Shown here: positions 16,379 to 28,418 of the stretch, piece after piece
Layout of the letters: the number at the start of each line of letters is the position of its first letter
Position numbering within the stretch: the stretch's first letter is position 1
NCBI RefSeq assembly: GCF_003633755.1
Contig: NZ_RBIL01000001.1
Span: 2,403,426-2,467,425 of the forward strand
Length of the DNA: 64,000 nucleotides
Reading direction: 5' to 3'
Origin: Solirubrobacter pauli
GTDB taxonomy: Bacteria; Actinomycetota; Thermoleophilia; Solirubrobacterales; Solirubrobacteraceae
The notes under the pieces: generated by a model
Databases searched by the model: none
What the model saw: only the letters and a program-made list of their open reading frames with translations
What the model was told of the DNA's origin: nothing
Program-made: the position numbers and the translations under genes

Positions 16379-17377
16379 ATGGCTAGTGCGCTGCGATCCG
16401 TCGCGCACGACGATCGCCTGAGCCTCGTCGAGCACCTCACGGAGCTCCGCGTCCGGATCGTCGTCTGCCTCGTGGCCTTCATCGCCGCGACGGTGGTCTG
16501 CTTCGTCTTCAACCAGACCGTCCTCGACGTGCTCAACGACCCGTTGACGTCGACGGTCGACCAGGGCAACCGCGACCCGATCCAGCAGGGCGCCGGCTTC
16601 GACCAGGAGATCTCCAAGGTCCTGGCCAGCAACGCTGCGGTCTTCCGCGCGCTCGCGGCGCGCGAGGACGACACCGGCGCCAAGACCGCGCTGATCGACG
16701 CCGCCGAGGAGAACGAGCGGGTCGCGAAGCTCGCGCCGGAGGTCACCGCCCGCAAGCCGGTCACCCTGGGCGTGTCCGAGCCGTTCATGCAGACGCTCAA
16801 GGTCGCCGCCTACGCCGGCCTGCTGATCTCGCTGCCACTGATCCTCTACCAGGTGTACGCGTTCGTCCTGCCCGCGTTCTCCCCCCGCGAGAAGCAGGTG
16901 GCGCTCCCCGCCATGTTGGCAGTGCCGTTCCTGTTCATTGGGGGAGTCGTCTTCGGCTACTTCACGGTCGTGCCGAGGGCGATCGAGTTCCTCCAGAACT
17001 TCAACACGGACCAGTTCGACGTGCTGATCCAGGCACAGCCGTACTACAAGTTCGTGCTCATGCTCCTGATCGCGATGGGGCTGCTTTTCCAGATCCCCGT
17101 TGCGATCGTGGCCGTCACGCGGGTCGGGATCGTCTCCACCAGCCAGCTCGCGCACAACCGGCGCTACGCGATCCTGGCCATCGCCGTGGCGGCGATGCTC
17201 CTCCCCGGACAGGACCCGATCACGATGGGGCTGATGATGGCCCCTATGTACGTTTTATTTGAGGCCTCTATTCTGTTCTCCTGGCTGCTAGACCGGCGCG
17301 CGGGTCGTGCCGCCCCGGAGGACCTCGAAGATCTTGAGGACTCTGAGCCAGAGCACCTCACCATCGATCGGGACTAG
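16379..17377 (+). CDS. tatC: Sec-independent translocase subunit TatC
   Basis: This 332-residue polytopic protein is the Tat substrate receptor. The N-terminal LSLVEHLTELRVRI motif, the LYQVYAFVLPAFSPREK region, the VPRAIEFLQNF loop and the C-terminal PITMGLMMAPMYVLFE helix are characteristic. It is longer than the roughly 250-residue E. coli protein. Between the first two helices there is a polar insertion (about residues 47-135), rich in charged residues, that would face the outside. It partners with the TatA protein just upstream. No tatB-like gene is visible, so a two-component TatAC system is possible. Confidence 0.93.
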   Translation: MASALRSVAHDDRLSLVEHLTELRVRIVVCLVAFIAATVVCFVFNQTVLDVLNDPLTSTVDQGNRDPIQQGAGFDQEISKVLASNAAVFRALAAREDDTGAKTALIDAAEENERVAKLAPEVTARKPVTLGVSEPFMQTLKVAAYAGLLISLPLILYQVYAFVLPAFSPREKQVALPAMLAVPFLFIGGVVFGYFTVVPRAIEFLQNFNTDQFDVLIQAQPYYKFVLMLLIAMGLLFQIPVAIVAVTRVGIVSTSQLAHNRRYAILAIAVAAMLLPGQDPITMGLMMAPMYVLFEASILFSWLLDRRAGRAAPEDLEDLEDSEPEHLTIDRD

Positions 17378-17390
17378 TCCGCAACACGCC

Positions 17391-18104
17391 ATGCTGTTCG
17401 ACCTGAGAACCGGCGCTCGCCGCCGCACCGTCAAAGTTGTCTACCTCGGCCTCGCGCTGCTCATGTTCGTGGGCTTCGTCGGGTTCGGCATCGGCTCCAG
17501 CGGCCTGTCCGGCAGCATCGGCGACCTGCTCCGAGACCAGGGCTCCACGACCGACGGCAGCAAGGACGCGGTCGAACGTGTCTCCACCCAGGTCCGCGCG
17601 GCCGACGCGAAGACCAAGGCCAACGCCAGCGACCCGGCCGCCTGGGCCGAGCTCGCCCAGGCCCGCTACCGCCTCGCCCAGCTCGGCGACAACATCGACC
17701 AGGCGACCAGCAACTACTCCGCCGAGGGCCGCCGCCAGCTCACCGCCGCCGGCGCCGCCTTCGACAAGTACGTCGCGCTCAACCCGCCCAAGCCCGATGA
17801 GCGCCTCGTCCGCAACATGACGCAGGCCTACATCGCGGTCGAGCAGCCCGCCAAGGCCGTCACGGCCCAGGAGATGCTCACCGAGATCGAGCCGGCCGCG
17901 AACACCTTCTCCAACCTGGCCATCCTCTCGTACCAGGCCGGCCAGACCCGCAAGGGCGACCTCGCGGCCGCCAAGGCCGTCGAGCTCACCGAGGGCGCCG
18001 ACGAGAAGAAGCAGCTCAAGGAGCAGCTCGACCAGGCGAAGACCTCCTCGCTCGGCCAGCAGATCCAGGAAGCGCTCACTCCGACGCCCACGCCCAAGAA
18101 GTAG
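17391..18104 (+). CDS. Hypothetical membrane-anchored protein with TPR-like helices
   Basis: This 237-residue protein has one N-terminal transmembrane segment (about 16-36) and an extracytoplasmic or cytoplasmic helical domain. The helices WAELAQARYRLAQLGD, NMTQAYIAVEQPAKAV and FSNLAILSYQAGQTRKGDL are spaced like tetratricopeptide repeats, which normally mediate protein-protein contacts. The tail is T/P/K-rich. It begins 13 bp after tatC and may be cotranscribed. No enzyme motif is present, so an adaptor or assembly role is only inference. Confidence 0.8.
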   Translation: MLFDLRTGARRRTVKVVYLGLALLMFVGFVGFGIGSSGLSGSIGDLLRDQGSTTDGSKDAVERVSTQVRAADAKTKANASDPAAWAELAQARYRLAQLGDNIDQATSNYSAEGRRQLTAAGAAFDKYVALNPPKPDERLVRNMTQAYIAVEQPAKAVTAQEMLTEIEPAANTFSNLAILSYQAGQTRKGDLAAAKAVELTEGADEKKQLKEQLDQAKTSSLGQQIQEALTPTPTPKK

Positions 18105-18140
18105 CGCCCAAGCCTCGCCGCTATCATTGGCGGCCAGCCC

Positions 18141-18213
18141 GCCCTTGTAGCTCAATTGGCAGAGCAGCGGACTCTTAATCCGAAGGTTGAAGGTTCGATT
18201 CCTTCCGGGGGCA
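18141..18213 (+). tRNA. tRNA-Lys (CTT)
   Basis: The 73 nt fold as a cloverleaf. The acceptor arm GCCCTTG pairs with CGGGGGC using two G-T pairs, followed by discriminator A. The D arm is GCTC/GAGC, the anticodon loop is CTCTTAA with anticodon CTT (Lys, codon AAG), and the T arm is GAAGG-TTCGATT-CCTTC. CCA is not encoded. Position 27-43 is a G-A mismatch. The 3' half from 18170 onward is the left end of an 82-bp repeat, so this gene is the attachment site of the adjacent mobile element and has been kept functional. Confidence 0.95.
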
Positions 18214-18251
18214 CTCACGAAACCGCGCGAAAGCGCGGTTTCGTCGTTTAA
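18170..18251. repeat. attL: left 82-bp direct repeat in tRNA-Lys
   Basis: This copy covers the 3' half of tRNA-Lys, from just before the anticodon triplet through the T arm, the acceptor end and the terminator hairpin. It matches 26392-26473 in the same orientation at 81 of 82 positions; the only difference is A at 18222 versus G at 26444. It marks the integration boundary of the mobile element, on the side where the tRNA is intact. Confidence 0.93.
18219..18242 (+). terminator. tRNA-Lys terminator hairpin
   Basis: A perfect 10-bp stem (GAAACCGCGC / GCGCGGTTTC) closed by a GAAA tetraloop and followed by GTCGTTT lies 5 nt after the tRNA. It is part of the att repeat; the right copy at 26441-26464 has one A-to-G change that turns an A-T pair into a G-T pair. 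Confidence 0.8.
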
Positions 18252-18274
18252 GCGGTCGCGTCGGTCCGCGGACT

Positions 18275-18297
18275 GTGTCCCAATCGTGTCCCGAACT
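18275..18297 (+). promoter_or_regulatory. Candidate integrase arm-type sites, left end
   Basis: Two direct copies of GTGTCCC followed by AA or GAA start at 18275 and 18286, 11 bp apart, 24 bp inside the left repeat. The same heptamer occurs twice, in the same orientation, near the right end. Paired short repeats inside both ends of an element are typical binding sites for the N-terminal domain of tyrosine integrases. Confidence 0.5.
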
Positions 18298-18321
18298 ACG
18301 GCTGCTTCTCAGTCGTTCCGG

Positions 18322-19692
18322 TCATTCCAAGGCACTGGGGAACGCCGATCGAAGCGTTGCCAGGGTTTCGTCTTCGAAGCCCACCTCTCCGAAGACGGAA
18401 ACCATCGTTGTGTCCCACTGTCGTCGCCCCCGGCGGGGCGGAGTCAGCACGACCGCGACAGTCCGGAGTTCGTCGCATGCCGCGCCGGCCTGCAGGACGT
18501 CGTAGTGGCGCAGTTGCGCCCACAGACCGAACATGTGCTGGATCTTCTCGTCATGCGGGCGGGAACACACGCCGTAGCCAAGATGGGTGCGACGATCTAG
18601 CCCACGAACGCTCCTCATCCGCCAAGCGATGGCCTCCTCGTCCGCCTGTACGGCGACTGCGGACATCGCATCCAAGAGGAACTCGCCGAGGGATGCCCGC
18701 TGACCCACAGGAAGTCGGTCGAGCTGCGCGAGAACGAGAAGCCGGTCGACCTCGGTCGCCTGCGTGAGCCGCGTCGTGGCGATGTCTTCGAAGATCATGC
18801 GAACGAGTGAGTGCGCCTTGCGATCGCTGGCTGCAACCGGAGCGAGCGGCAGGAGAGGGGTCGACACGACCTCCACACCCGCGACCATCATCTCCTCGGG
18901 GAACGGTGATGGCGGCGTCGCAGCGTCTTCTTGGGCCAGGTCGTAGTAGCGCAGCGGCTCATCACCGAGCCCGACCGCTTCGCCGGCCACGCGCTCGAAG
19001 TACTCCACAACGGCGTGCGTTGACTTCAGCTGCTCGAACAGAAACTCCCAGTCCCGTCGGAGCAGGACTACGGTCGGATGCTTGGCCTCTTCGAGCGACG
19101 GCACGGTTTCGCCGGGTGGCGCATCGTGATCGAGAACGACGACAACGAGCCAACGATGTGCGTTCCCGTCGATCTCGACGGAGCGACCGCGGAGGTTCGT
19201 AAGAAGACGGGGCTGCGCTTTGAGGAATCGGACGGTTCCGTTCCCCTGCTTGATCGCATCGCTGGCCTTCTTCTTGAGCCAGCTGCGCTCTCTCTCGGGG
19301 TCTGAGCCGGGGTTCTCCCGGCTCTTCACCTGCACGACCACGCCCAGGTCTCCGACGATCAACAGCCCGTCGCCGAGTTCGCGGGTTCCCGAGCCGACAG
19401 CCGCGCTTTCCGGGAGGTACACGAAGTCAGGGAGCCCCCACACCGCCGCCGCGTCCTGAGTCGCGGCCTCCGCAGCCGGCCCGGTCCGCACGCCATCGGC
19501 CAAGGGCGAAGCACTGGGCACAGTACGGACCATCACGCCGCCGGGCGTCTCGACCAACAGCTGCAGCTCGCCTCGGGGCGGTGGAAGGAGAACCCGGTTC
19601 GAATCGCCCGTGCGGCGATCGATGCAGCAGCGCTTGTACTTCTTGCCGCTGCCGCACGGACAGGGATCGTTACGACCAGCAGTCGCAGTCAT
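18322..19692 (-). CDS. SEC-C motif protein with QxK nuclease-like motif (element cargo)
   Basis: This 456-residue soluble protein starts with a SEC-C zinc-binding motif, GRNDPCPCGSGKKYKRCC, using C11, C13, C22 and C23. A strand-rich segment follows with D108 and VVVQVKSRE (Q121, K123). This D-x12-QxK pattern resembles the Mrr-type variant of the PD-(D/E)xK nuclease fold. The C-terminal half (about 200-456) is helical with no recognised domain. ATG 19692 is preferred; TTG 19698 in frame is possible. It lies between the left end and the integrase, divergent from the latter, as cargo genes often do. A defence-related nuclease is a reasonable inference, not a demonstrated function. Confidence 0.75.
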   Translation of the reverse strand: MTATAGRNDPCPCGSGKKYKRCCIDRRTGDSNRVLLPPPRGELQLLVETPGGVMVRTVPSASPLADGVRTGPAAEAATQDAAAVWGLPDFVYLPESAAVGSGTRELGDGLLIVGDLGVVVQVKSRENPGSDPERERSWLKKKASDAIKQGNGTVRFLKAQPRLLTNLRGRSVEIDGNAHRWLVVVVLDHDAPPGETVPSLEEAKHPTVVLLRRDWEFLFEQLKSTHAVVEYFERVAGEAVGLGDEPLRYYDLAQEDAATPPSPFPEEMMVAGVEVVSTPLLPLAPVAASDRKAHSLVRMIFEDIATTRLTQATEVDRLLVLAQLDRLPVGQRASLGEFLLDAMSAVAVQADEEAIAWRMRSVRGLDRRTHLGYGVCSRPHDEKIQHMFGLWAQLRHYDVLQAGAACDELRTVAVVLTPPRRGRRQWDTTMVSVFGEVGFEDETLATLRSAFPSALE

Positions 19693-19785
19693 TCGCAAGC
19701 CAGCGTCCCAGGCGGAACGGCGTGCTGACCTGACCGAAGGGTTCGATTCTCAACGTGGGGGACCGAGCTTTTCGCGGAGCGCCCT

Positions 19786-20976
19786 ATGGAGGACATGGCG
19801 CAGCCGATCTCCGGACACGTCTATCGCCACGAAGGAGCCCGCGGTCCGGTGTGGCGAGCGAAGTACCGGTTGCCCGACGGGCGCCAAGTTCACAAGACGA
19901 TCGGGCCGGTATGGACGGAGCGGGGGAGACCGCGGGCCGGCTTCTACACGAAGCGCGGCGCTGAAGCCTGGCTTCGTGAGGTCATCGAGCAGGCGCGCGC
20001 CGGAGTGCTGCCCGGGATGGTCCGTACGGGCGTGACCTTCGCTGACGCCTGCAGCGAGTACCTGCGATACGTCGAGCACGATCTGGACCTCAAGCCTTCG
20101 ACGTTAGGTGACTACCGCTCGGTGATCCGGGCGCACCTGCTCCCCGCGTTCGGCTCGCTGCGGATCGAGGACGTGACGGCCGACCGCATCGAGGCGTGGA
20201 AGGGCACGCTGCGAATGAGCAACCGCACCAAGGTCAAACTGCTCACGGTCCTGAACGGAATCATGGCCCGGGCCCGTCGGCTCCATCGGCTGCCCGTCAA
20301 CCCGATGGCCGACGTCGAGAAGCCGCGGCATCGTCGCTCGACGGCCATCGAGGTGTTCTCGCCCGAGGAGGTGCTCGCGCTGGTTCGGAACGCGGACTCC
20401 GAGCAGGACGCTGCGATCTACCTGACCGCGGCCTTCACGGGCCTCCGCCGTGGCGAGCTCGTGGCCCTTCGCTGGCGCGACGTCGACTTCCCGGCCCAGC
20501 GCATCCGCGTCTCCGGCTCCTACGCAGGAGGGCGACTCACAACGCCCAAGAGCGGCAAGGTCCGTTCGGTGCCGTTGGCGCCGGCCGCCGCCGAAGCGCT
20601 CGCCCGGCTCGGCCAGCGGGAGTTCTGGACGAGCGAGGACGCTCTCGTCTTCCCGGACGTCGTCGGTGGGTACCTCGACGCTTCGGCACTGGCCCGCCGC
20701 TACCGCGCGGCGCTCAAGCGCGCGGACCTGCGGCCGCTCCGGTTCCACGACCTGCGCCACACGTTCGGCACGCGGATGATCGCCAAGGCCGACATCAGGA
20801 GAGTGCAGGAGTGGATGGGCCACGCCGACGTCGCGACGACGATGAAGTACCTCCACTACGTCGAGCGCCCCGACGAAGCGCGCCTGGTCGCCGAGGCCTT
20901 CGAGCTCCAAGAACACGAAAACCGCCTCGGCGGGCGGTCTAATCCATATGTCGGCAGGTCGCCCGAGAACCTTTAG
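19786..20976 (+). CDS. Tyrosine site-specific integrase
   Basis: This 396-residue phage-type integrase has an N-terminal arm-binding-like domain (about 7-75) with VWRAKYRLPDG, a SAM-like core-binding domain (about 82-178) and a catalytic domain. Catalytic residues are visible: R221 in TGLRRGEL, K255 in TPKSGKVR, H321 and R324 in HDLRHTFG, H346 in MGHADV, and the nucleophile Y355 in TTMKYLHY. It would recombine the tRNA-Lys 3' end with the element's attP. The set is complete, so it may still be active. An ATG at 19786 is used; another in-frame ATG lies 9 bp downstream. The first 93 bp upstream, shared with the divergent SEC-C gene, should hold the promoter. Confidence 0.95.
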   Translation: MEDMAQPISGHVYRHEGARGPVWRAKYRLPDGRQVHKTIGPVWTERGRPRAGFYTKRGAEAWLREVIEQARAGVLPGMVRTGVTFADACSEYLRYVEHDLDLKPSTLGDYRSVIRAHLLPAFGSLRIEDVTADRIEAWKGTLRMSNRTKVKLLTVLNGIMARARRLHRLPVNPMADVEKPRHRRSTAIEVFSPEEVLALVRNADSEQDAAIYLTAAFTGLRRGELVALRWRDVDFPAQRIRVSGSYAGGRLTTPKSGKVRSVPLAPAAAEALARLGQREFWTSEDALVFPDVVGGYLDASALARRYRAALKRADLRPLRFHDLRHTFGTRMIAKADIRRVQEWMGHADVATTMKYLHYVERPDEARLVAEAFELQEHENRLGGRSNPYVGRSPENL

Positions 20977-21008
20977 CCCTATTTCGCGTGCTGGCGCGTT
21001 GCCGCTCA

Positions 21009-23543
21009 TCAACGCTCGATGACATGCCCGCGCCATCGTTGCGCGGTGGCGACCTCGTGCGCCGCTGATCGCGTCAGCCCGTCACGCAAGGCGTCGGCCG
21101 GCCGCCACGTCCCGTCGACGTTGGGCATGAACTCCGCGCTCTCCCGCGCCTCCCGAGTCACGTACAAACGGTTCGACTCCCGTCCGCGGCTCAGCGCGAC
21201 GTACGCCCACTCCTTCGACAGCCCGTCCGTGGCGAGCACGAACGTCTGCCCGCAGGTCATCCCCTGCGCCGCGTGCCCGGTGATCGCGTACCCGAGCGAC
21301 ACCGAGTCCTCGACGTACTCAGGATCGAGCCGCACACGCTGTCCGCGAATCTCCACGTCGAGTCCACCGCCCTCGGCGCCGACGACGGTCCCGCGCTCGC
21401 CGTTCACGACCCCGAGCCGCAGCTCATTGCGTCGCATCACGACGCGGTCGCCCACAGCGATGCCGGCATCGCCTTCCACTCCTAGGACCCCAGCGGCGCG
21501 CATCAGGGCGTGCGCGCGACCGTTCAGGTCGGCCACGTCTCGCCGTCGGTGGGCGATCATAACGGCGTCGTCGGGATCGCCGGTCTTCCACCAGTCTTCG
21601 ACGAGGCGCGTCCGCACCGCGTCGTCGTCCTGCCCGGAGACGATCCGCCCTCGCTCCGAGTACCGACGGACCGCGCCGTCGGCATCGCCGTCCCGCAATA
21701 GCGAGAGCGCCTCCCGCTCCCACAGCGCGCTCTGCCGTCGATTCTCGCGCAGCCCGATGGCCGGCAGTCGCCGCGCCAGGGCCCCGAACGTTCCGCCCGC
21801 CCCGATCTCGGGCAGCTGCCGGTCGTCGCCGACCAGGACCAGCTTCGCGCCGGCCCGCTCGACGTGGTCCACAAGCTCGGCCAGCGCGCGCGTCGGAACC
21901 ATTCCGGCCTCATCGATCACCAGCACCGATCGCCGCTGCAGCACGCGTGATGGCCGCTTCCGTAGCTCTTCCAGCAGCCCGGCGATGCTCTCGCTCTCGA
22001 TCCCGGCACCGTCCTCGAGCTCGATGGCCGCCCGCCGAGCAAGCGCAGCCCCGACCACGCGGAACCCGCTGCCCTCCCACGCCTCACGCGCCGTGGCGAG
22101 CGCGAACGTCTTCCCGGTCCCAGCCTGCCCGATCACCACGGCGACACCGTCGCCATCGAGCGCCAGGCGCCGCACCATCTCCGCTTGCTCGCCGGCGATC
22201 GTCGGCCGCCGCCGCAACGCCCGCTCCACGGCGTTCTCGCGACCGACCCCGCACCTCTGGCCTCTCGTCCTGTCGGCGTAGTCGAGCACCCGCCGCTCGC
22301 GCTCCAGCAGTTCGGACGTGGAGTACCGCCGTTCGGTCGCCAGCCCGGTCACGAGCTGCCCCTCGACCCCGATGACCTCGCTGCGACGATCGCCATCAGC
22401 GAGCACGACCACGCGCTCTGACCGGAGGAACCGATCGGCAAGCCGCTCCAACTCCCCGAGCCCGACGTCGACGCCGCCCGGCAGACCTTCGGCGATCGCC
22501 TGCAGCACCTCCCGACGCCTGAAGGTCGACCGCTCCTTCGTCAGCCCGTCGTGTCCGCCGAGGCGAGCAAATAGCTCGTCGACCTCGCCGCCCTCGACTC
22601 CGCGCGTCCTGGCTTGGCCGACGACCTCGCGTATCGCAGGCATATCGAGCCCGAGCGCGGCAGCCCGCGCACGCCACTCCGGAACGAGCGCCTCGGGAGC
22701 AACCCGGTAGTCCTTCGCCCGCCGAGTCGCAAGCGCCGCGACCTGAGCCGCGCCAGGGGTCGTCGTCCCGCGTCGAGCCATCTCGGCTTCGATCTCCGCC
22801 CGCCGCCGACTGAACGCCCGCCGCACCTCGGGAGCGACACCGGCGACGTCAGCGATTCCGTTCCGCACCGGTTCCCACTCGAACCCGAGCTCGCGCGTCA
22901 ACAGCGCCCGCAGCCGGTGCTCGTACAGATACCCAGCGGTCTTCGCGTGCGCGTAGATCCGCCGTCCGTCGAGCGTCCCCCACCGTCCGTCGGCTCCGAG
23001 CACCAGGTTCGCGACGAGGACGTGCGTGTGCAGCTGCGGATCACCGGCCCGCGACGTGCGGTGCCGGAACGCCGCCCAGATCAGACCGCGCCCGGCGATC
23101 GGGACCGTTCCGCCGGCGCCGCGCCGCGTGACACCAGCCTCCCGCTCGACATACGCGAGCGCCTCGCGCACCGCCTGATCGTGCGCGCCTCGTATGACGC
23201 CGCGCATAGCGTCGTCCCCGATCCCGAACAACACGCTCACGCTCTTCGGAGCCGAGAACGTCAGATCGAACCCGGGCACCCGCCGCGGCACAACCCGCCC
23301 GAGCGGATCTCCGCTCGCGGGGACGCACCCGCTGAGCACCCGATCGAGCCGCAGTGCATCGACAACGCCGCCGAGCCCGAGCGCCCGCGTCCCGTCCCCG
23401 ACCCAGGTCCCGGCAGCTTCGCCCACGTGCAGGTAGTAGTCCTCCACGCCCGACGCGACGGCGCCGGCCCGCGTCACACTCCCCTGCGCCTGCTCCAGGT
23501 AGTAGTCGGCCTGACCGACAGCGAGCTTCCCGATCGACAACAC
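21009..23543 (-). CDS. MobF-family conjugative relaxase with helicase domain
   Basis: This 844-residue protein has the TrwC/TraI layout. The N-terminal relaxase holds tyrosines at DYY (13-15) and DYY (35-37) and the HUH metal triad H161, H172 and H174 in FRHRTSRAGDPQLHTHV. A RecD-like SF1 helicase follows with Walker A GQAGTGKT at 472-479 and Walker B VLVIDEAGM (D544, E545). The C-terminal UvrD-like segment YAITGHAAQGMTCGQTFVL is also present. It would nick at oriT, stay bound to the 5' end and unwind the transferred strand. The start is GTG at 23543. Transfer genes are absent, so it depends on another element's type IV secretion system. Confidence 0.95.
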   Translation of the reverse strand: MLSIGKLAVGQADYYLEQAQGSVTRAGAVASGVEDYYLHVGEAAGTWVGDGTRALGLGGVVDALRLDRVLSGCVPASGDPLGRVVPRRVPGFDLTFSAPKSVSVLFGIGDDAMRGVIRGAHDQAVREALAYVEREAGVTRRGAGGTVPIAGRGLIWAAFRHRTSRAGDPQLHTHVLVANLVLGADGRWGTLDGRRIYAHAKTAGYLYEHRLRALLTRELGFEWEPVRNGIADVAGVAPEVRRAFSRRRAEIEAEMARRGTTTPGAAQVAALATRRAKDYRVAPEALVPEWRARAAALGLDMPAIREVVGQARTRGVEGGEVDELFARLGGHDGLTKERSTFRRREVLQAIAEGLPGGVDVGLGELERLADRFLRSERVVVLADGDRRSEVIGVEGQLVTGLATERRYSTSELLERERRVLDYADRTRGQRCGVGRENAVERALRRRPTIAGEQAEMVRRLALDGDGVAVVIGQAGTGKTFALATAREAWEGSGFRVVGAALARRAAIELEDGAGIESESIAGLLEELRKRPSRVLQRRSVLVIDEAGMVPTRALAELVDHVERAGAKLVLVGDDRQLPEIGAGGTFGALARRLPAIGLRENRRQSALWEREALSLLRDGDADGAVRRYSERGRIVSGQDDDAVRTRLVEDWWKTGDPDDAVMIAHRRRDVADLNGRAHALMRAAGVLGVEGDAGIAVGDRVVMRRNELRLGVVNGERGTVVGAEGGGLDVEIRGQRVRLDPEYVEDSVSLGYAITGHAAQGMTCGQTFVLATDGLSKEWAYVALSRGRESNRLYVTREARESAEFMPNVDGTWRPADALRDGLTRSAAHEVATAQRWRGHVIER

Positions 23544-23759
23544 GCCTCAGTCCAAGCCGCCAACCGAGTCGACCGGGCAATCGACTTCATGCGCATGACC
23601 GGCAAGAGGCATCGACCTCTCAGCCAGTGGAAGGTGGCCGACGGCCACCGAGCCGGCCTACTTCAGCGAGGGACGACGTCTGGGTCGAGGGACGACTTCA
23701 AGAGCGGCACGCACTTGCACCCTCTGGGATGCACAACTCCGAACGGCGGCCGCAGCTTG
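23544..23759. other. Candidate origin of transfer upstream of the relaxase gene
   Basis: This 216-bp gap lies directly upstream of the relaxase start and holds no credible gene. It contains a perfect 7-bp inverted repeat GGTGGCC-GAC-GGCCACC at 23633-23649, a smaller AGAGG/CCTCT stem just before it, and two copies of the 11-mer CGAGGGACGAC at 23667 and 23686 with 19-bp spacing. oriT regions of MobF systems sit next to the relaxase gene and combine inverted repeats with direct repeats. The nic site cannot be assigned from sequence alone. Confidence 0.45.
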
Positions 23760-24107
23760 TCAGTCGGGATCGTCCACGTCCGCGGCGGCCGCGTCGCGAA
23801 GTCGTTGAGCTCGCTCGGCAGCCATCCGAGCTCGGTCGGCTTGGATCTCGGCGGCTAGCGACGCGCCGTCCCGCAGCACGAGTGCAAGCTCAGGTCGATA
23901 CCGCAGCACGTACGTCTCATCGTCTCGACGGACCAGGCCGGCCTCGATCATCCGTGCGAGCGACTTGGTCAGGGTGCCTCTCGACGCCCCCGTGTCCTTG
24001 ATCCCGTGCCAAATCTCGGACCACGTGAGTGGTTCGTCAGACGCCTGCAAATGCTCGGCAATGGCCGCTCCGTGGCCCAAACCAAGCGCTGCGAATACGT
24101 CTTCCAT
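23760..24107 (-). CDS. Winged helix-turn-helix protein of the mobile element
   Basis: This 115-residue protein has a MarR/ArsR-like winged-helix layout: helix AIAEHLQASDEPLTWSEI, recognition region SRGTLTKSLARMIEAGLV and wing RRDDETYVLRYRP. A charged coiled-coil-like tail with LAAEIQADRARMAAERAQRLRD could mediate dimerisation. It lies upstream of the relaxase on the same strand, with the candidate oriT between them. A perfect 18-bp palindrome lies 21-38 bp upstream of its start, which suggests autoregulation and perhaps control of the relaxase and of the small gene on the other side. It could also act as an excision or mobilisation accessory factor. Confidence 0.78.
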   Translation of the reverse strand: MEDVFAALGLGHGAAIAEHLQASDEPLTWSEIWHGIKDTGASRGTLTKSLARMIEAGLVRRDDETYVLRYRPELALVLRDGASLAAEIQADRARMAAERAQRLRDAAAADVDDPD

Positions 24108-24127
24108 CCGACATGGTCCCTAACCTG

Positions 24128-24145
24128 AGTTTCCAAGTGGAAACT
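24128..24145. promoter_or_regulatory. Palindromic operator upstream of the winged-helix gene
   Basis: AGTTTCCA-AG-TGGAAACT is a perfect 8-bp inverted repeat with a 2-bp centre, in the intergenic region between the divergent winged-helix gene and the small gene at 24316. The size and position fit a dimeric repressor site. Confidence 0.6.
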
Positions 24146-24315
24146 GTAGTGGAGGGGGGCGAACTTCGCCCGTTCAGGGCTCTGTCGCCTGAAGGCCGCG
24201 CGCTACGATTGGCGGAGCCCATAGCAGCTCTTCCGGACGGATGCGAGTGGCGACAAGTGCGGGCTCGGCCCTTTACTGGGTCCGCCTCAGTCCGACCGGA
24301 AGGTAGGAGATCCAC

Positions 24316-24564
24316 ATGTCTGGCCGCTACAAGCGACACGTTCCCTTCCATCATCAGACAACGCTCAGCACGCACCACGTTGGTCGCCTCAACTGGTTCA
24401 TCGGAGCCGCAGAGCAGCCAGCGGTCCCGCGAGACCCACAGTTGGACGAGGTTACGCGGGTGAGGGAAGAACTCGAGAAGTTCGCGAAGCCCAGGCCGGC
24501 AAATCCGATCGCGCCGCCCTCTGACAAGGACGCTGAGGCGGTTCCCTCCAAGTCCCGTCGCTAG
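24316..24564 (+). CDS. Small hypothetical protein of the mobile element
   Basis: This is an 82-residue polar protein, basic at the N-terminus (SGRYKRHVPFHHQTT) and with a helical, charged middle (DEVTRVREELEKFAKP) and a K/S/R-rich tail. GGTAGGAGAT placed 5-8 bp before the ATG is a strong ribosome binding site and the main support that this is a gene. No family is recognised. It points at the convergent membrane-protein gene and overlaps it by 4 nt. The 170 bp between the palindrome and this gene show no other feature. Confidence 0.65.
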   Translation: MSGRYKRHVPFHHQTTLSTHHVGRLNWFIGAAEQPAVPRDPQLDEVTRVREELEKFAKPRPANPIAPPSDKDAEAVPSKSRR

Positions 24565-26201
24565 TCGCTCCTGTTCCACGACCGTCGGGGAACGACGAGA
24601 GGTAGCGCTGAAGTCACCGCAGCGATCCATGCTCCGTAGAACAGCCAGTCAATGAGCGCGAACGCATCGCTCGTGGCGTTTGCTGCCTCGTGAAGAAGCA
24701 CTCCCGCGGCGACTACCGGCAGCATGATCGCGAAGATGCTCAGAGCGCGCGTGCCAGACAGTACGCGCTGAAGAAACGCGTTCTCGGGTTCTCGGGCGAG
24801 CGTGTAGGCCAAGAACGCGGGGGTGAGTAGCAGGAAGGCGACGGCGCCGTCCAGCACTCCCCCTGCGTCCGAGGCCACGATGCTCGGCGCAAGATCTCGG
24901 TAGGCGGTCAATATGCAGGCCACAAGACCTGTCACCAGCGCACCTGCGAGGAGTCTGCGACGTTCGGGTAACAGCAGCACGGTCGCGACACCCGTGCTAC
25001 GTCGTCGGGGCCCGCTGATGTAGTAATGAACCCGGCCGGTGAGAAGCTGGACGTCGCGCCGCTGCAGATGAAGCACGGGACGCGGGTCGCGACGCCCGAG
25101 AGTGATAGCCAGCCGGTCCTCCAAGATGGACAGGATCCGCGCTGCTCGCTGCCGGACGCGTGAAGGCAACCCGGGTGGCGCGGGGTCCGAGTCCAGAACA
25201 AGCGCCCCCGCCACGACCTCGAGCCCTGGCGGAGCGTTCATCTCAAGGTGGTAGCTCCCGGCGTCCGAGACATGCGGAACGTCGATGCCCACCAGAACGC
25301 TGCGAAGCCCGAGTGTCGTCAGGAGGCTGCGCAGCGGTGCGAGCCGCGCCTTGACCGGTACGTCGTACGCCACCTTGACCACGCGGCGAGTCCCGGATTG
25401 CCCGCGAACATCAATCCACAGCAACGTGCTGTCCACGAAGATCGTTGCCAGATCGATCAGCCGACGAAACGGCTCAGGATCAATCGGTTCCTCCCGAGCT
25501 GCCAGATACTCCTGGAGGGCGAGCGACAGGACGCGAAGGGCATGTCGAGATGTGTCGCCCTCGCCATGGACGATGCTGTGGAGCAATTCGGCGACGTGCT
25601 CATGAACCTCGGCTCCGAGCGCGTACTCAGCGACGCCCGTGAGAACGCGCTCGTCCAGGAGGTTCGTTGTCCCCTTCGAAAGAAGAGGGACGACGGCGCC
25701 CCACTCGTCCCGCAGATCAAACGCGAGAACTGGGGGCCAGTTGCGCAGAACCGACAGCGGGAGGTATGAGAGCTCTTCGCCGTCCTCGGCGCCGAAATCC
25801 GGTACCTCGAAATCGACGCTGATCCGGCGGCGGGCGATATTGAAGTCGAGCAACTCCAACTGCTCGACGCGTCTGCGAACGAAAGTCTCGCGATCCCAGA
25901 AAAGGGGTGCTGCAGCCGCTGCGAGTTCGCGAACGCCCCCAACCTCTCTGAACGCTTCTGCCTCCGCAGCTTCGAGGGCGGCTTCCTCTGAGGGTGGTGG
26001 CTCCGCGGTCAGAGCCCTCCACAAGACGATGAGCCCCAGGGTCACCACTGTCCCGACTACGACCGCGATCAGGGACACCAGCAGGACGCTCAACCAGCCG
26101 GGACCTGGGATCACTGGATCACTCACGAGGGCGAAAGCGACAATTGCCGCGCCGGCGACCAAGCCAAGAATGAAGATCGTGATTCGCGCTAGGGCAGTCA
26201 T
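24561..26201 (-). CDS. Multi-pass membrane protein of the mobile element
   Basis: This 546-residue protein has two N-terminal transmembrane helices (about 4-25 and 36-58). A large soluble region (about 65-415) contains the motif-like stretch FNIARRRISVDFEVPDF and NWPPVLAFDLRDEWGAVVPLL, and four C-terminal hydrophobic helices follow (about 418-436, 450-470, 488-508 and 520-540). No enzyme motif is recognised and no function can be assigned. ATG 26201 is used; GTG 26240 would add 13 residues. It is the last gene before the right end and is probably cargo. Its codon use looks less biased than that of the chromosomal neighbours by eye, in line with transfer. Confidence 0.75.
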   Translation of the reverse strand: MTALARITIFILGLVAGAAIVAFALVSDPVIPGPGWLSVLLVSLIAVVVGTVVTLGLIVLWRALTAEPPPSEEAALEAAEAEAFREVGGVRELAAAAAPLFWDRETFVRRRVEQLELLDFNIARRRISVDFEVPDFGAEDGEELSYLPLSVLRNWPPVLAFDLRDEWGAVVPLLSKGTTNLLDERVLTGVAEYALGAEVHEHVAELLHSIVHGEGDTSRHALRVLSLALQEYLAAREEPIDPEPFRRLIDLATIFVDSTLLWIDVRGQSGTRRVVKVAYDVPVKARLAPLRSLLTTLGLRSVLVGIDVPHVSDAGSYHLEMNAPPGLEVVAGALVLDSDPAPPGLPSRVRQRAARILSILEDRLAITLGRRDPRPVLHLQRRDVQLLTGRVHYYISGPRRRSTGVATVLLLPERRRLLAGALVTGLVACILTAYRDLAPSIVASDAGGVLDGAVAFLLLTPAFLAYTLAREPENAFLQRVLSGTRALSIFAIMLPVVAAGVLLHEAANATSDAFALIDWLFYGAWIAAVTSALPLVVPRRSWNRSD

Positions 26202-26288
26202 TGACCGCGGCCAGTATGTACCGGGCTGCGGACGTTCCACGCAAGCACTCTGGAACGATCAGGTGGTACGAGTAGCCGGGGGCGGTTT

Positions 26289-26310
26289 GTGTCCCGAACT
26301 GTGTCCCGAA
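26289..26310 (+). promoter_or_regulatory. Candidate integrase arm-type sites, right end
   Basis: Two copies of GTGTCCCGAA start at 26289 and 26301, 12 bp apart, 82 bp inside the right repeat. They match the pair at 18275 and 18286 near the left end. Confidence 0.5.
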
Positions 26311-26391
26311 GTCAGCAGAACTGACCCCTCCCAACGGGATCAAGCGCGCCTCAAAACGGCTCTACAGAGCCAAAGGGAACTCGCTCGCCCA

Positions 26392-26473
26392 GACTCTTAA
26401 TCCGAAGGTTGAAGGTTCGATTCCTTCCGGGGGCACTCACGAAGCCGCGCGAAAGCGCGGTTTCGTCGTTTAA
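26392..26473. repeat. attR: right 82-bp direct repeat (tRNA-Lys 3' fragment)
   Basis: This is a displaced copy of the tRNA-Lys 3' half and terminator, 8222 bp from the left copy. There is no matching 5' half upstream of it, so it is not a second tRNA gene. The stop codon of the neighbouring HxlR gene (26470-26472, minus strand) lies inside it. Confidence 0.93.
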
Positions 26474-26943
26474 CGGCTGCGGTGCAGCTCGAGGTCCGAG
26501 ACCTCGACCGGGTGGTCGTGCTCGCACCGCAGCTCGGCGTGGACGCGGGCGCCGCAGCCGGCGTGCTCGAGGTGGACGTAGCCGCCGTCGTTCGTCCAGC
26601 GGTCGCCCCACTGCATGAGGGCGACGAGCGCGGGGAACAGGTCGCGGCCCATCTCGGTGAGGACGTAGCGCTGGCGGGTGCGCTGGCCGGGTTCCTTGTA
26701 GGGCTGCTTGGCGAGCAGGCCCGCGTCGACCAGCTCGCGCAGGCGGGAGGCGGTGACGGGTTCGCTCGCTCCGACGCGCTCGGCGAAGTCGTCGAAGCGG
26801 GTGGTGCCGTAGAAGGCCTCGCGGAGGAGCAGGAACGCGGTGCGCGTGCTGACGACGTCGAGCGCCTTGGCGATCGAGCAGTGCGTGGCGGTCCAGCCGC
26901 TGCGTGGGTCGAGGGTGCCCGCCATCCGGACGACGTCGCTCAT
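26470..26943 (-). CDS. HxlR-family transcriptional regulator
   Basis: This 157-residue protein has the HxlR winged-helix layout: CSIAKALDVVSTRTAFLLLREAFYGTTRFDDFAERVGASEPVTASRLRELVDAGLL followed by a wing YKEPGQRTRQRYVLTEMGRDLFPALVALMQWGDRW, each part recognisable by its family pattern. A short C-terminal region has C/H-rich GCGARVHAELRCEHDH that could bind a metal. It is divergent from the MFS transporter with 56 bp between starts, the usual layout for an efflux pump and its regulator. The stop codon lies inside the attR repeat, so the right junction of the mobile element falls at the end of this gene. Confidence 0.88.
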   Translation of the reverse strand: MSDVVRMAGTLDPRSGWTATHCSIAKALDVVSTRTAFLLLREAFYGTTRFDDFAERVGASEPVTASRLRELVDAGLLAKQPYKEPGQRTRQRYVLTEMGRDLFPALVALMQWGDRWTNDGGYVHLEHAGCGARVHAELRCEHDHPVEVSDLELHRSR

Positions 26944-26999
26944 GAGGGTGATGGTATCTGGCTTCTGTTCGCAGCAGTCAGCCTGGTACGGTGCTGGCT

Positions 27000-28418
27000 A
27001 TGAATTGGCTAAGTCAGCTGCGGCGCGCGGATGCGTCGTCCGGGGTCGTCCTCGTCGTGGTGTGCGCGGCCGTCGTGCTGGCGAGCCTTGACCTGTTCAT
27101 CGTCAACGTCGCGCTGCCGGACATGGCGGAGGACTTCGGGGCGCCGGGGCTGGCGGAGCTGTCGTGGGTGCTGAACGGGTACGCGATCGTGTACGCCGCG
27201 CTGTTGCTGCTGTTCGGGCGGATGGCCGAGCGGCGCCGGCGCGACCTGGGCTTCCTCGTCGGGGTGCTGGTGTTCACGGCGGCGTCCGCGGCCTGCGCCG
27301 CGGCGACCTCGCTCGAGGCGCTGGTGGTCTTCCGCCTGGTGCAGGCGGCGGGTGCGGCGCTGCTCACGCCGACGTCGCTGAGCCTCATCCTCGTGACGAC
27401 GGAGCCGTCCCGGCGGCCGTCGGCGGTGCGCATCTGGACGGCGGTCGGCGGGGCGGCGGCGGCGCTGGGGCCGGTGGTCGGCGGGCTGCTCGTGTCGGCG
27501 TCGTGGCGTTGGGTCTTCTTGGTGAACGTGCCGATCGGTCTGGCGGCGCTGGTCGTCGGGTGGCGGCGGCTGCCGCGCGTGGCGGGGCATGAGGTGCCGC
27601 ATCCCGATGCGCTCGGGGCGGCGCTCGGCACCGGCGGGATCGCCGCGTTGACGCTCGGTCTCGTGAAGGCCGAGGATTGGGGGTGGGCGAGCGGGGCGAC
27701 CATCGGCGTGCTCGCGGTCGCGGTGGCGGCGCTCGTCCTGTTCGTGCTGCACACGGTGCGGGCGCAGAACCCGCTCGTGGACCCGGCGCTGTTCCGCGGG
27801 CGGCCGTTCCGCGGGGCGGGCATCGCGATGATCCTGTTCTCGATGGCGTTCGGCGCGATGCTGCTCGCGGCCGTGCTGTGGGCGCAGACGGCGTGGGGCT
27901 GGTCGGCCCTGCAGACGGGGCTCGCGATCGCCCCTGGGCCGCTGATGGTGCCGCTGTTCGGCGTCCTGCTCGCCGGGCGGCTGATCGCGCGCTACGGACC
28001 CGGCGTGGTGGCCGGCGTCGGCACGGCGGTGTTCGGCCTCGGGTTGGCCTGGTTCGCGCTGGAGATCGAGATCGAGCCGGACTACGTCGGCGCGATGCTG
28101 CCCGGGATGCTGGCGACGGGGATCGGCGTCGGCCTCACCCTGCCGACGCTGATGGCGACCGCCGCGGGCTCGCTTCCGCCGCACGCGTTCGCGACCGGCT
28201 CGGCGGTCGTCAACACGCTGCGCCAGGTCGGGCTGGCGATCGGCGTCGCGATCCTGGTCGCCATCCTCGGCACGCAGCCGGACCTCAGCGCCTTCCAGCA
28301 GGGGTGGTGGGTGCTGGCGGGCCTGTCGTGGGTCGCCTCGCTCGCGGCGTTCACGCTGCTCGGCCACACGCGCGCCAGGTCATCGACGACGACCGATCGG
28401 GGTAGCGTTGCCGCATGA
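27000..28418 (+). CDS. MFS drug efflux transporter, DHA2 (EmrB/QacA) family
   Basis: This 472-residue polytopic protein has about 14 hydrophobic helices, as in the DHA2 drug:H+ antiporter group. Motif-like segments include LDLFIVNVALPDMAEDF in helix 1, the loop GRMAERRRRDLGF after helix 2, and LTPTSLSLIL and ALGPVVGGLLVSASWRWVFLVNVPIG in helices 4-6, the latter being the family's antiporter motif region. The substrate is unknown. ATG 27000 is used; GTG 26991 is possible. It is divergent from the HxlR regulator, which probably controls it. The stop overlaps the next ATG (ATGA). Confidence 0.9.
   Translation: MNWLSQLRRADASSGVVLVVVCAAVVLASLDLFIVNVALPDMAEDFGAPGLAELSWVLNGYAIVYAALLLLFGRMAERRRRDLGFLVGVLVFTAASAACAAATSLEALVVFRLVQAAGAALLTPTSLSLILVTTEPSRRPSAVRIWTAVGGAAAALGPVVGGLLVSASWRWVFLVNVPIGLAALVVGWRRLPRVAGHEVPHPDALGAALGTGGIAALTLGLVKAEDWGWASGATIGVLAVAVAALVLFVLHTVRAQNPLVDPALFRGRPFRGAGIAMILFSMAFGAMLLAAVLWAQTAWGWSALQTGLAIAPGPLMVPLFGVLLAGRLIARYGPGVVAGVGTAVFGLGLAWFALEIEIEPDYVGAMLPGMLATGIGVGLTLPTLMATAAGSLPPHAFATGSAVVNTLRQVGLAIGVAILVAILGTQPDLSAFQQGWWVLAGLSWVASLAAFTLLGHTRARSSTTTDRGSVAA

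What the first reader, a model, noticed from the sequence alone, without database searches (positions are those of the whole stretch)
18170..26473. 8.2-kb integrative mobilizable element in tRNA-Lys with exact ends
Two 82-bp direct repeats (81 of 82 identical) start at 18170 and 26392. The left one completes tRNA-Lys; the right one is a fragment. Between them are a full tyrosine integrase and a MobF relaxase, but no transfer channel genes. The gene content fits a small element that borrows another element's conjugation machinery. The remaining four genes have no clear function and may be new cargo.
Basis: partly seen in the sequence, partly recalled or inferred. Interest (0 to 1): 0.75.

Follow-up and report, generated by a model that had tools for sequence, protein, structure and literature searches.

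The report
Small mobilizable element carrying nuclease gene
An 8.2-kb DNA element sits exactly in a lysine tRNA gene of a soil-type actinobacterium; it looks built to hitch a ride on other elements' conjugation machinery, and it carries a little-known predicted DNA-cutting enzyme that may protect its host against foreign DNA.

Summary
Two 82-bp repeats (81/82 identical) flank 8,222 bp; the left completes tRNA-Lys(CTT) and the genome search shows no third copy. None of six congeners carries the element; three keep integrase relics at that tRNA. Integrase and MobF relaxase are intact; no coupling or pore gene was found among the six genes.

New here: (1) a GTGTCCC pair, steps 11-12 bp, at each end and nowhere else in 64 kb: probable integrase arm sites. 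(2) A motif 163 bp upstream of mobF, matched upstream of 14 of 24 other mobF genes, including two near coupling-protein genes in congeners: candidate oriT, though here it points the opposite way. (3) The SEC-C gene is modelled as a PD-(D/E)XK nuclease; its core has no Pfam or PADLOC model. (4) Some sister int-mobF elements carry Shedu, TIR-STAND or AbiE genes; one scanned did not. The strain shows no convincing helper. Excision, transfer and defence are untested.

Verdict: a canonical IME with a relaxase type (MobF) that a 2017 review had not seen in canonical IMEs, possibly with anti-phage cargo.

The parts
18141..18214 (+). tRNA-Lys (CTT), the integration target; completed by the left att copy
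18170..18251 (+). attL: left 82-bp repeat, tRNA 3' half plus a perfect inverted repeat
18275..18292 (+). left GTGTCCC direct pair (11-bp step), putative integrase arm sites
18322..19698 (-). cargo: SEC-C zinc motif plus predicted PD-(D/E)XK nuclease, 458 aa
19786..20976 (+). tyrosine integrase, 396 aa
21009..23543 (-). MobF relaxase (TrwC domain plus RecD-like helicase), 844 aa
23706..23733 (+). candidate oriT: GGCACGCACTTGCAC motif with bulged hairpin; strand opposite to mobF
23760..24107 (-). 115-aa protein, weak winged-helix matches below cut-off; possible regulator
24316..24564 (+). 82-aa ORF of unknown function
24561..26240 (-). 559-aa protein with six hydrophobic segments, unknown function
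26289..26307 (+). right GTGTCCC direct pair (12-bp step), putative integrase arm sites
26392..26473 (+). attR: right 82-bp repeat, tRNA fragment plus inverted repeat

Best explanation
A canonical integrative and mobilizable element. Its tyrosine integrase recombines the two att copies (core near the tRNA anticodon, arm sites at the GTGTCCC pairs) to excise a circle and to reinsert at tRNA-Lys while leaving the tRNA whole. When a conjugative element with a VirD4-type coupling protein is in the cell, the element's MobF relaxase nicks its own oriT (candidate at 23706-23733) and is recruited with the attached strand to the foreign channel. The cargo, at least the SEC-C nuclease, probably acts against foreign DNA such as phage. 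Shown: ends, empty site, uninterrupted genes, no channel gene found among the six, shared motif. Predicted: nuclease fold. Inferred: excision, nicking site, helper type, defence role.
For: Repeats and no third copy. Continuous empty site in G003. Relics of related integrases at the same tRNA in G002, G004 and G005. GTGTCCC pairs only at the two ends. Uninterrupted integrase and relaxase with catalytic-type motifs (their meaning recalled). Motif shared with the mobF genes of G002 and G004 that lie near coupling-protein genes; these relaxases are the closest found, 56% and 55% identical. Other int-mobF elements with att repeats, some with defence genes. Nuclease model pLDDT 87; the top eight VIA-align rows are entries of BspD6I and FokI, Z 8.9-10.2.
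Against: No excision, nicking or transfer data. No convincing helper in the strain: one match to PF02534, over its cut-off (23.6 against 20.1 bits) but covering 80 of 468 positions, E 6.9e-5, not followed up. The oriT-like motif is on the strand opposite to mobF; in the other 14 matching loci it is on the same strand. Its hairpin is imperfect, and 13 of 200 shuffles fold as well. No excisionase gene recognised. In the putative helpers only the coupling protein and one VirB4-like match below its cut-off were seen among the proteins scanned. Foldseek alone gave the nuclease no match at E 0.001.
Confidence: 0.82

Rival explanations
1. A decayed conjugative element (ICE) that lost its coupling protein and channel and is now fixed, or at most able to excise.
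For: The closest relaxases lie near coupling-protein genes. No convincing helper in the strain. Integrase relics at the same tRNA and a broken mobF beside an integrase elsewhere in the genome show that such elements decay.
Against: Integrase and relaxase uninterrupted, att 81/82, both arm pairs kept. Sister elements with repeats of their own have a similar int-mobF plan.
Confidence: 0.13
2. A prophage remnant or phage satellite.
For: A tyrosine integrase at a tRNA is common to these; the integrase matches PHROG integrase families.
Against: Apart from integrase, helicase-domain and SEC-C-motif matches, the six proteins match no PHROG family, and no structural phage protein is among them. A full MobF relaxase is present.
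Confidence: 0.03

Closest known systems
Canonical IMEs (review PMC5704250, passages read)
   Same: Own integrase, att repeats at a tRNA 3' end, own relaxase, no coupling protein or pore gene found
   Different: The 2017 review says known canonical IMEs carry MobP, MobQ, MobV or MobC and none MobF or MobH, and speaks of only one canonical IME in Actinobacteria
MOBF IMEs of Mesorhizobium (PMC8627217, passages read)
   Same: MobF relaxase, integration at tRNA genes, no T4SS of their own
   Different: Proteobacterial; most lie in a Ti-like traACD locus, which is not seen here
Defence-carrying IMEs of E. coli (PMC10121019, passages read)
   Same: Small dependent elements that carry defence genes
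   Different: Other host and genes; the defence role here is only inferred
T4SS-type ICEs of Actinobacteria (PMC3218068, passages read)
   Same: TrwC/MobF relaxase plus integrase
   Different: They encode a coupling protein and a VirB4; none found here
PD-(D/E)XK endonucleases (BspD6I, FokI; Shedu SduA lower in the list)
   Same: Predicted fold of the nuclease domain
   Different: SEC-C zinc motif, QxK in place of (D/E)xK, 8-13% sequence identity

Membership tests
Canonical IME | Own integrase and flanking direct repeats at a specific site | tested here: met
Canonical IME | Own canonical relaxase | tested here: met
   NCBIfam MobF 262 bits against a cut-off of 100
Canonical IME | No coupling protein and no mating-pore protein | tested here: met
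   six genes of 82 aa or more scanned; smaller ORFs not
Canonical IME | oriT cut by the relaxase | tested here: inconclusive
   candidate motif with statistical support, opposite orientation, imperfect hairpin
Canonical IME | Excision and transfer in trans by a helper | not testable with these tools
   sequence only; an empty site exists in G003
ICE (T4SS type) | Coupling protein and VirB4 inside the element | tested here: not met
AICE | FtsK/TraB translocase | tested here: not met
   no such match above a cut-off
AICE | Replication initiator | tested here: inconclusive
   115-aa protein has a weak RP-C match, 17.5 bits against a cut-off of 24.4
Phage or phage satellite | Phage structural or packaging genes | tested here: not met
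PD-(D/E)XK nuclease (SEC-C protein) | Fold | tested here: met
   in a predicted model only: VIA-align Z 8.9-10.2 to BspD6I and FokI; Foldseek alone gave nothing at E 0.001
PD-(D/E)XK nuclease (SEC-C protein) | Catalytic D...(D/E)xK | tested here: inconclusive
   E107, D110, Q123, K125, R127 invariant in 28 rows, a QxK variant; not superposed on a solved active site
Anti-phage defence gene (SEC-C protein) | Protection against phage | not testable with these tools
   PADLOC matches only the SEC-C motif; no conserved neighbour in the 28 loci compared, beyond close kin

The most novel reading that the evidence does not exclude
In this actinobacterial order, lone-MobF IMEs at tRNA genes form a standing fleet of defence carriers, some of them moved by local T4SS elements through a shared oriT (GGCAYRCASTTGCAC plus hairpin), and the SEC-C/PD-(D/E)XK protein is the nuclease of a new single-gene anti-phage system spread across Actinomycetota.
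Probability: 0.35. Interest if true: 0.68.

Novelty: new variant of a known kind. Interest (0 to 1): 0.5.

Why it matters
It gives an exactly delimited MobF IME in a phylum for which a 2017 review spoke of only one canonical IME (PMC5704250, passages), with a candidate oriT to test. A survey of predicted Mycolicibacterium plasmids, whose relaxases were mostly MOBF (63 of 67), found no known oriT in them (PMC8190616, passages), so a testable sequence for actinobacterial MobF relaxases is useful. If the nuclease protects against phage, a family whose core has no model in the libraries searched becomes a new defence gene.

Tried and rejected
Known RNA families in 17000-28000: only the tRNA. Integrase against phage records: 1182 records match, all below 60% identity, the listed rows near 30%. 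Relaxase against plasmids: best rows about 33-35%. MobF scan of genome contigs: no relative (it relies on short exact peptide patterns). Membrane protein: no family match in Pfam, PADLOC, NCBIfam or PHROGs, no meaningful PDB match (best E 0.24), none in viral contigs, and a single-sequence model with pLDDT 42 that I do not use. SEC-C core in viral contigs: none. A tRNA-like stretch before the integrase (about 19741) was considered as a relic att by eye and dropped. The Solirubrobacterales motif was sought in seven corynebacterial mobF plasmid stretches and no close match lies just upstream of mobF; an analogue is seen by eye in six of seven (one weak), with no statistic. Conserved neighbours of the nuclease gene: none beyond close kin in the 28 loci compared. 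Foldseek alone gave no match at E 0.001. Literature searches: (open-access library only).

On the second look at my calls I mended: the coupling-protein match in the own genome does pass its cut-off; defence cargo was scanned in G001 but not in G006; the G008 element is 15.8 kb; G004's coupling protein is near mobF, not adjacent; the nuclease's catalytic-residue row is now inconclusive.

Full report
Observation. The two 82-bp repeats are real, 81/82 identical, 8,222 bp apart. They run from tRNA position 30 through the tRNA 3' end and an inverted repeat that looks like a terminator (read from the sequence; no terminator scan was run). The own genome (7.14 Mb, 4 contigs, 96.5% complete) gives no third copy; the next matches are tRNA-like places at 78-81%.

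Empty site. With the left flank as query, all six congeners (G001-G006) show the tRNA-Lys locus. In G003 the tRNA is followed directly by HxlR and the MFS gene, and the joined window flanks align with it across one att copy. G001 and G006 have about 0.85 kb between the tRNA and the homologue of gene 28415, with no integrase match and no HxlR-MFS. G004 keeps a 105-bp piece of integrase (90% identical), G005 integrase fragments and G002 a truncated integrase. So 0 of 6 congeners have the element in the stretches compared (and 0 of 6 have the SEC-C gene anywhere), 1 of 6 has the exact empty site, and 3 of 6 have integrase relics: the site is a repeated target.

Ends. GTGTCCC occurs as a tandem pair at 18275/18286 and 26289/26301 and nowhere else in the 64 kb, either strand, with spacers of 2-8 bases. 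In 15 related integrase loci the longest direct pair near the integrase start has a step of exactly 11 bp in 10, 12 bp in 4 and 10 bp in 1. A pair of 6 bp or more is found in about 72% of random windows of the same loci, so pair length alone proves little, and I computed no null for the step. I read these as integrase arm sites.

Mobility genes. Integrase relatives (E up to 1e-20) occur in 44 of 61 genomes, own included, MobF relatives (E up to 1e-30) in 48 of 146 family genomes, own included. The closest relaxases found (56% in G002, 55% in G004) lie next to, or within about 2.3 kb of, VirD4-type coupling-protein genes, with a partly shared set of neighbours. Among the neighbouring proteins scanned, Pfam showed only the coupling protein and one VirB4-like match below its cut-off, so a complete channel there is not shown. 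Coupling proteins (PF02534) pass the cut-off in 16 of 61 genomes. The own genome is one of them, but only with 23.6 bits over 80 of 468 positions (E 6.9e-5), which I did not follow up. No convincing helper is therefore seen in this strain; other conjugation types were not searched for.

Candidate oriT. Comparing 12 mobF upstream regions showed 20 identical bases in L095 and L096 and a variant in L101 and L104. With GGCAYRCASTTGCAC, up to 2 mismatches, within 400 bp upstream, 15 of 25 distinct mobF genes match, the window included; one search prints 16 of 26 because L009 repeats the window. Three more were dropped there for short upstream sequence. Shuffled upstreams give 0.18 loci on average, at most 1. 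The pattern was drawn from five of these loci, so the fair count is 10 of the other 20, one of which (L107) I had also seen beforehand. Loci without mobF held 16 matches in 1.29 Mb, one of them (L129) the window's own site by its coordinates. In 11 of 15 the motif's GCAC opens a perfect stem of 4 bp or more, against 1.6 by shuffling. The window is one of the four without; its hairpin has a bulge. By folding energy, of six motif or motif-like sites only one (L096) stands out; in the window 13 of 200 shuffles fold as well. The window's motif points opposite to mobF, while the other 14 point with it. Ten mobF loci do not match, among them the int-mobF elements L056, L097, L098 and L099.

Cargo. 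The SEC-C gene product matches Pfam, PADLOC, NCBIfam and PHROGs only by its zinc motif. Of 232 genomes of the order 12 have a match, but only 4, the own one included, beyond that motif. A scan of named genomes gave 30 loci, 26 of them Actinomycetota by their titles. Of 29 read, only 2 carry a SEC-C motif; others begin differently, several with a longer N-terminal region. The alignment used 27 of the 30 plus the window and keeps E107, D110, Q123, K125 and R127 invariant. AlphaFold2 gives pLDDT 87 and pTM 0.87. VIA-align, a second look at Foldseek's candidates, puts entries of two enzymes, BspD6I and FokI, in its top eight rows (Z 8.9-10.2), then lower down Upx, HindIII, Can2, McrBC and SduA; Foldseek itself had nothing at E 0.001. 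I conclude a PD-(D/E)XK nuclease by fold; a defence role is inferred. The core gene has no conserved neighbour in 28 loci beyond close kin, and integrase-like genes lie in 4 of the loci. Relatives also occur in 9 plasmid records of Streptomyces (8) and Embleya (1). The 559-aa membrane protein has remote relatives in 14 other genomes of 232 and no assigned function.

Sister elements. G001 has an 8.8-kb element at tRNA-Met (19-bp repeats) with int, mobF, Shedu SduA and a TIR-NB-ARC-TPR protein; G006 has the same int-mobF layout and repeats, but its cargo was not scanned. G005 has a 14.7-kb one with AbiEi/AbiEii, and integrase pieces after its far repeat. G008 has a 15.8-kb one (42-bp repeats) followed by another integrase; its cargo was not scanned. 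G013 has a 9.3-kb one with arm-like repeats at both ends; the four of its genes that I scanned gave no defence match, apart from a toxin-like hit below cut-off. In G004 SIR2 and HerA genes stand next to an int-mobF pair whose far end was not found. These are the loci I looked into, not a sample, and no control for defence content was made, so the defence link is suggestive only.

Known or new. A 2017 review says known canonical IMEs carry MobP, Q, V or C relaxases, none MobF or MobH, and speaks of one in Actinobacteria (PMC5704250, passages). A 2021 study delineates 24 putative MOBF IMEs in Mesorhizobium (PMC8627217, passages). IMEs with defence genes are known in E. coli (PMC10121019, passages). 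So the kind is known. The combination of MobF, actinobacterial host, candidate oriT and this nuclease family did not turn up in the searches, of which I saw listings and, for seven papers, passages.

Noticed in passing
L054 (G000:C1:1845932-1850556): A second locus of the same genome with an integrase (39-40% identical) near a mobF broken by stop codons.
   Followed up: partly
window 26470-28418: HxlR and MFS genes sit next to tRNA-Lys in this genome and, without the element, in G003, but were not found in the stretches fetched from the other five congeners, suggesting an earlier acquisition at the same hotspot.
   Followed up: partly
L048, between the MFS gene and the gene-28415 homologue: G003 holds about 8 kb of further DNA here; its content was not examined.
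   Followed up: no
L198-L204, upstream of mobF: Corynebacterial mobF plasmids show a related-looking motif with a small inverted repeat (six of seven by eye, one weak), possibly their oriT.
   Followed up: partly
L166-L190: Several relatives of the nuclease core are longer, with an N-terminal region of some 300 residues; two of them (L167, L187) scanned whole had no Pfam match.
   Followed up: partly
L194/L195 with L095/L096: Two congeners share proteins around mobF and a coupling protein, including one with Ig-like domains, perhaps an uncharacterised actinobacterial conjugation system.
   Followed up: partly
L056/L057 (G008:C23): Two integrase-bearing elements in tandem at tRNA-Met, the second starting at the first one's far att copy.
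   Followed up: partly
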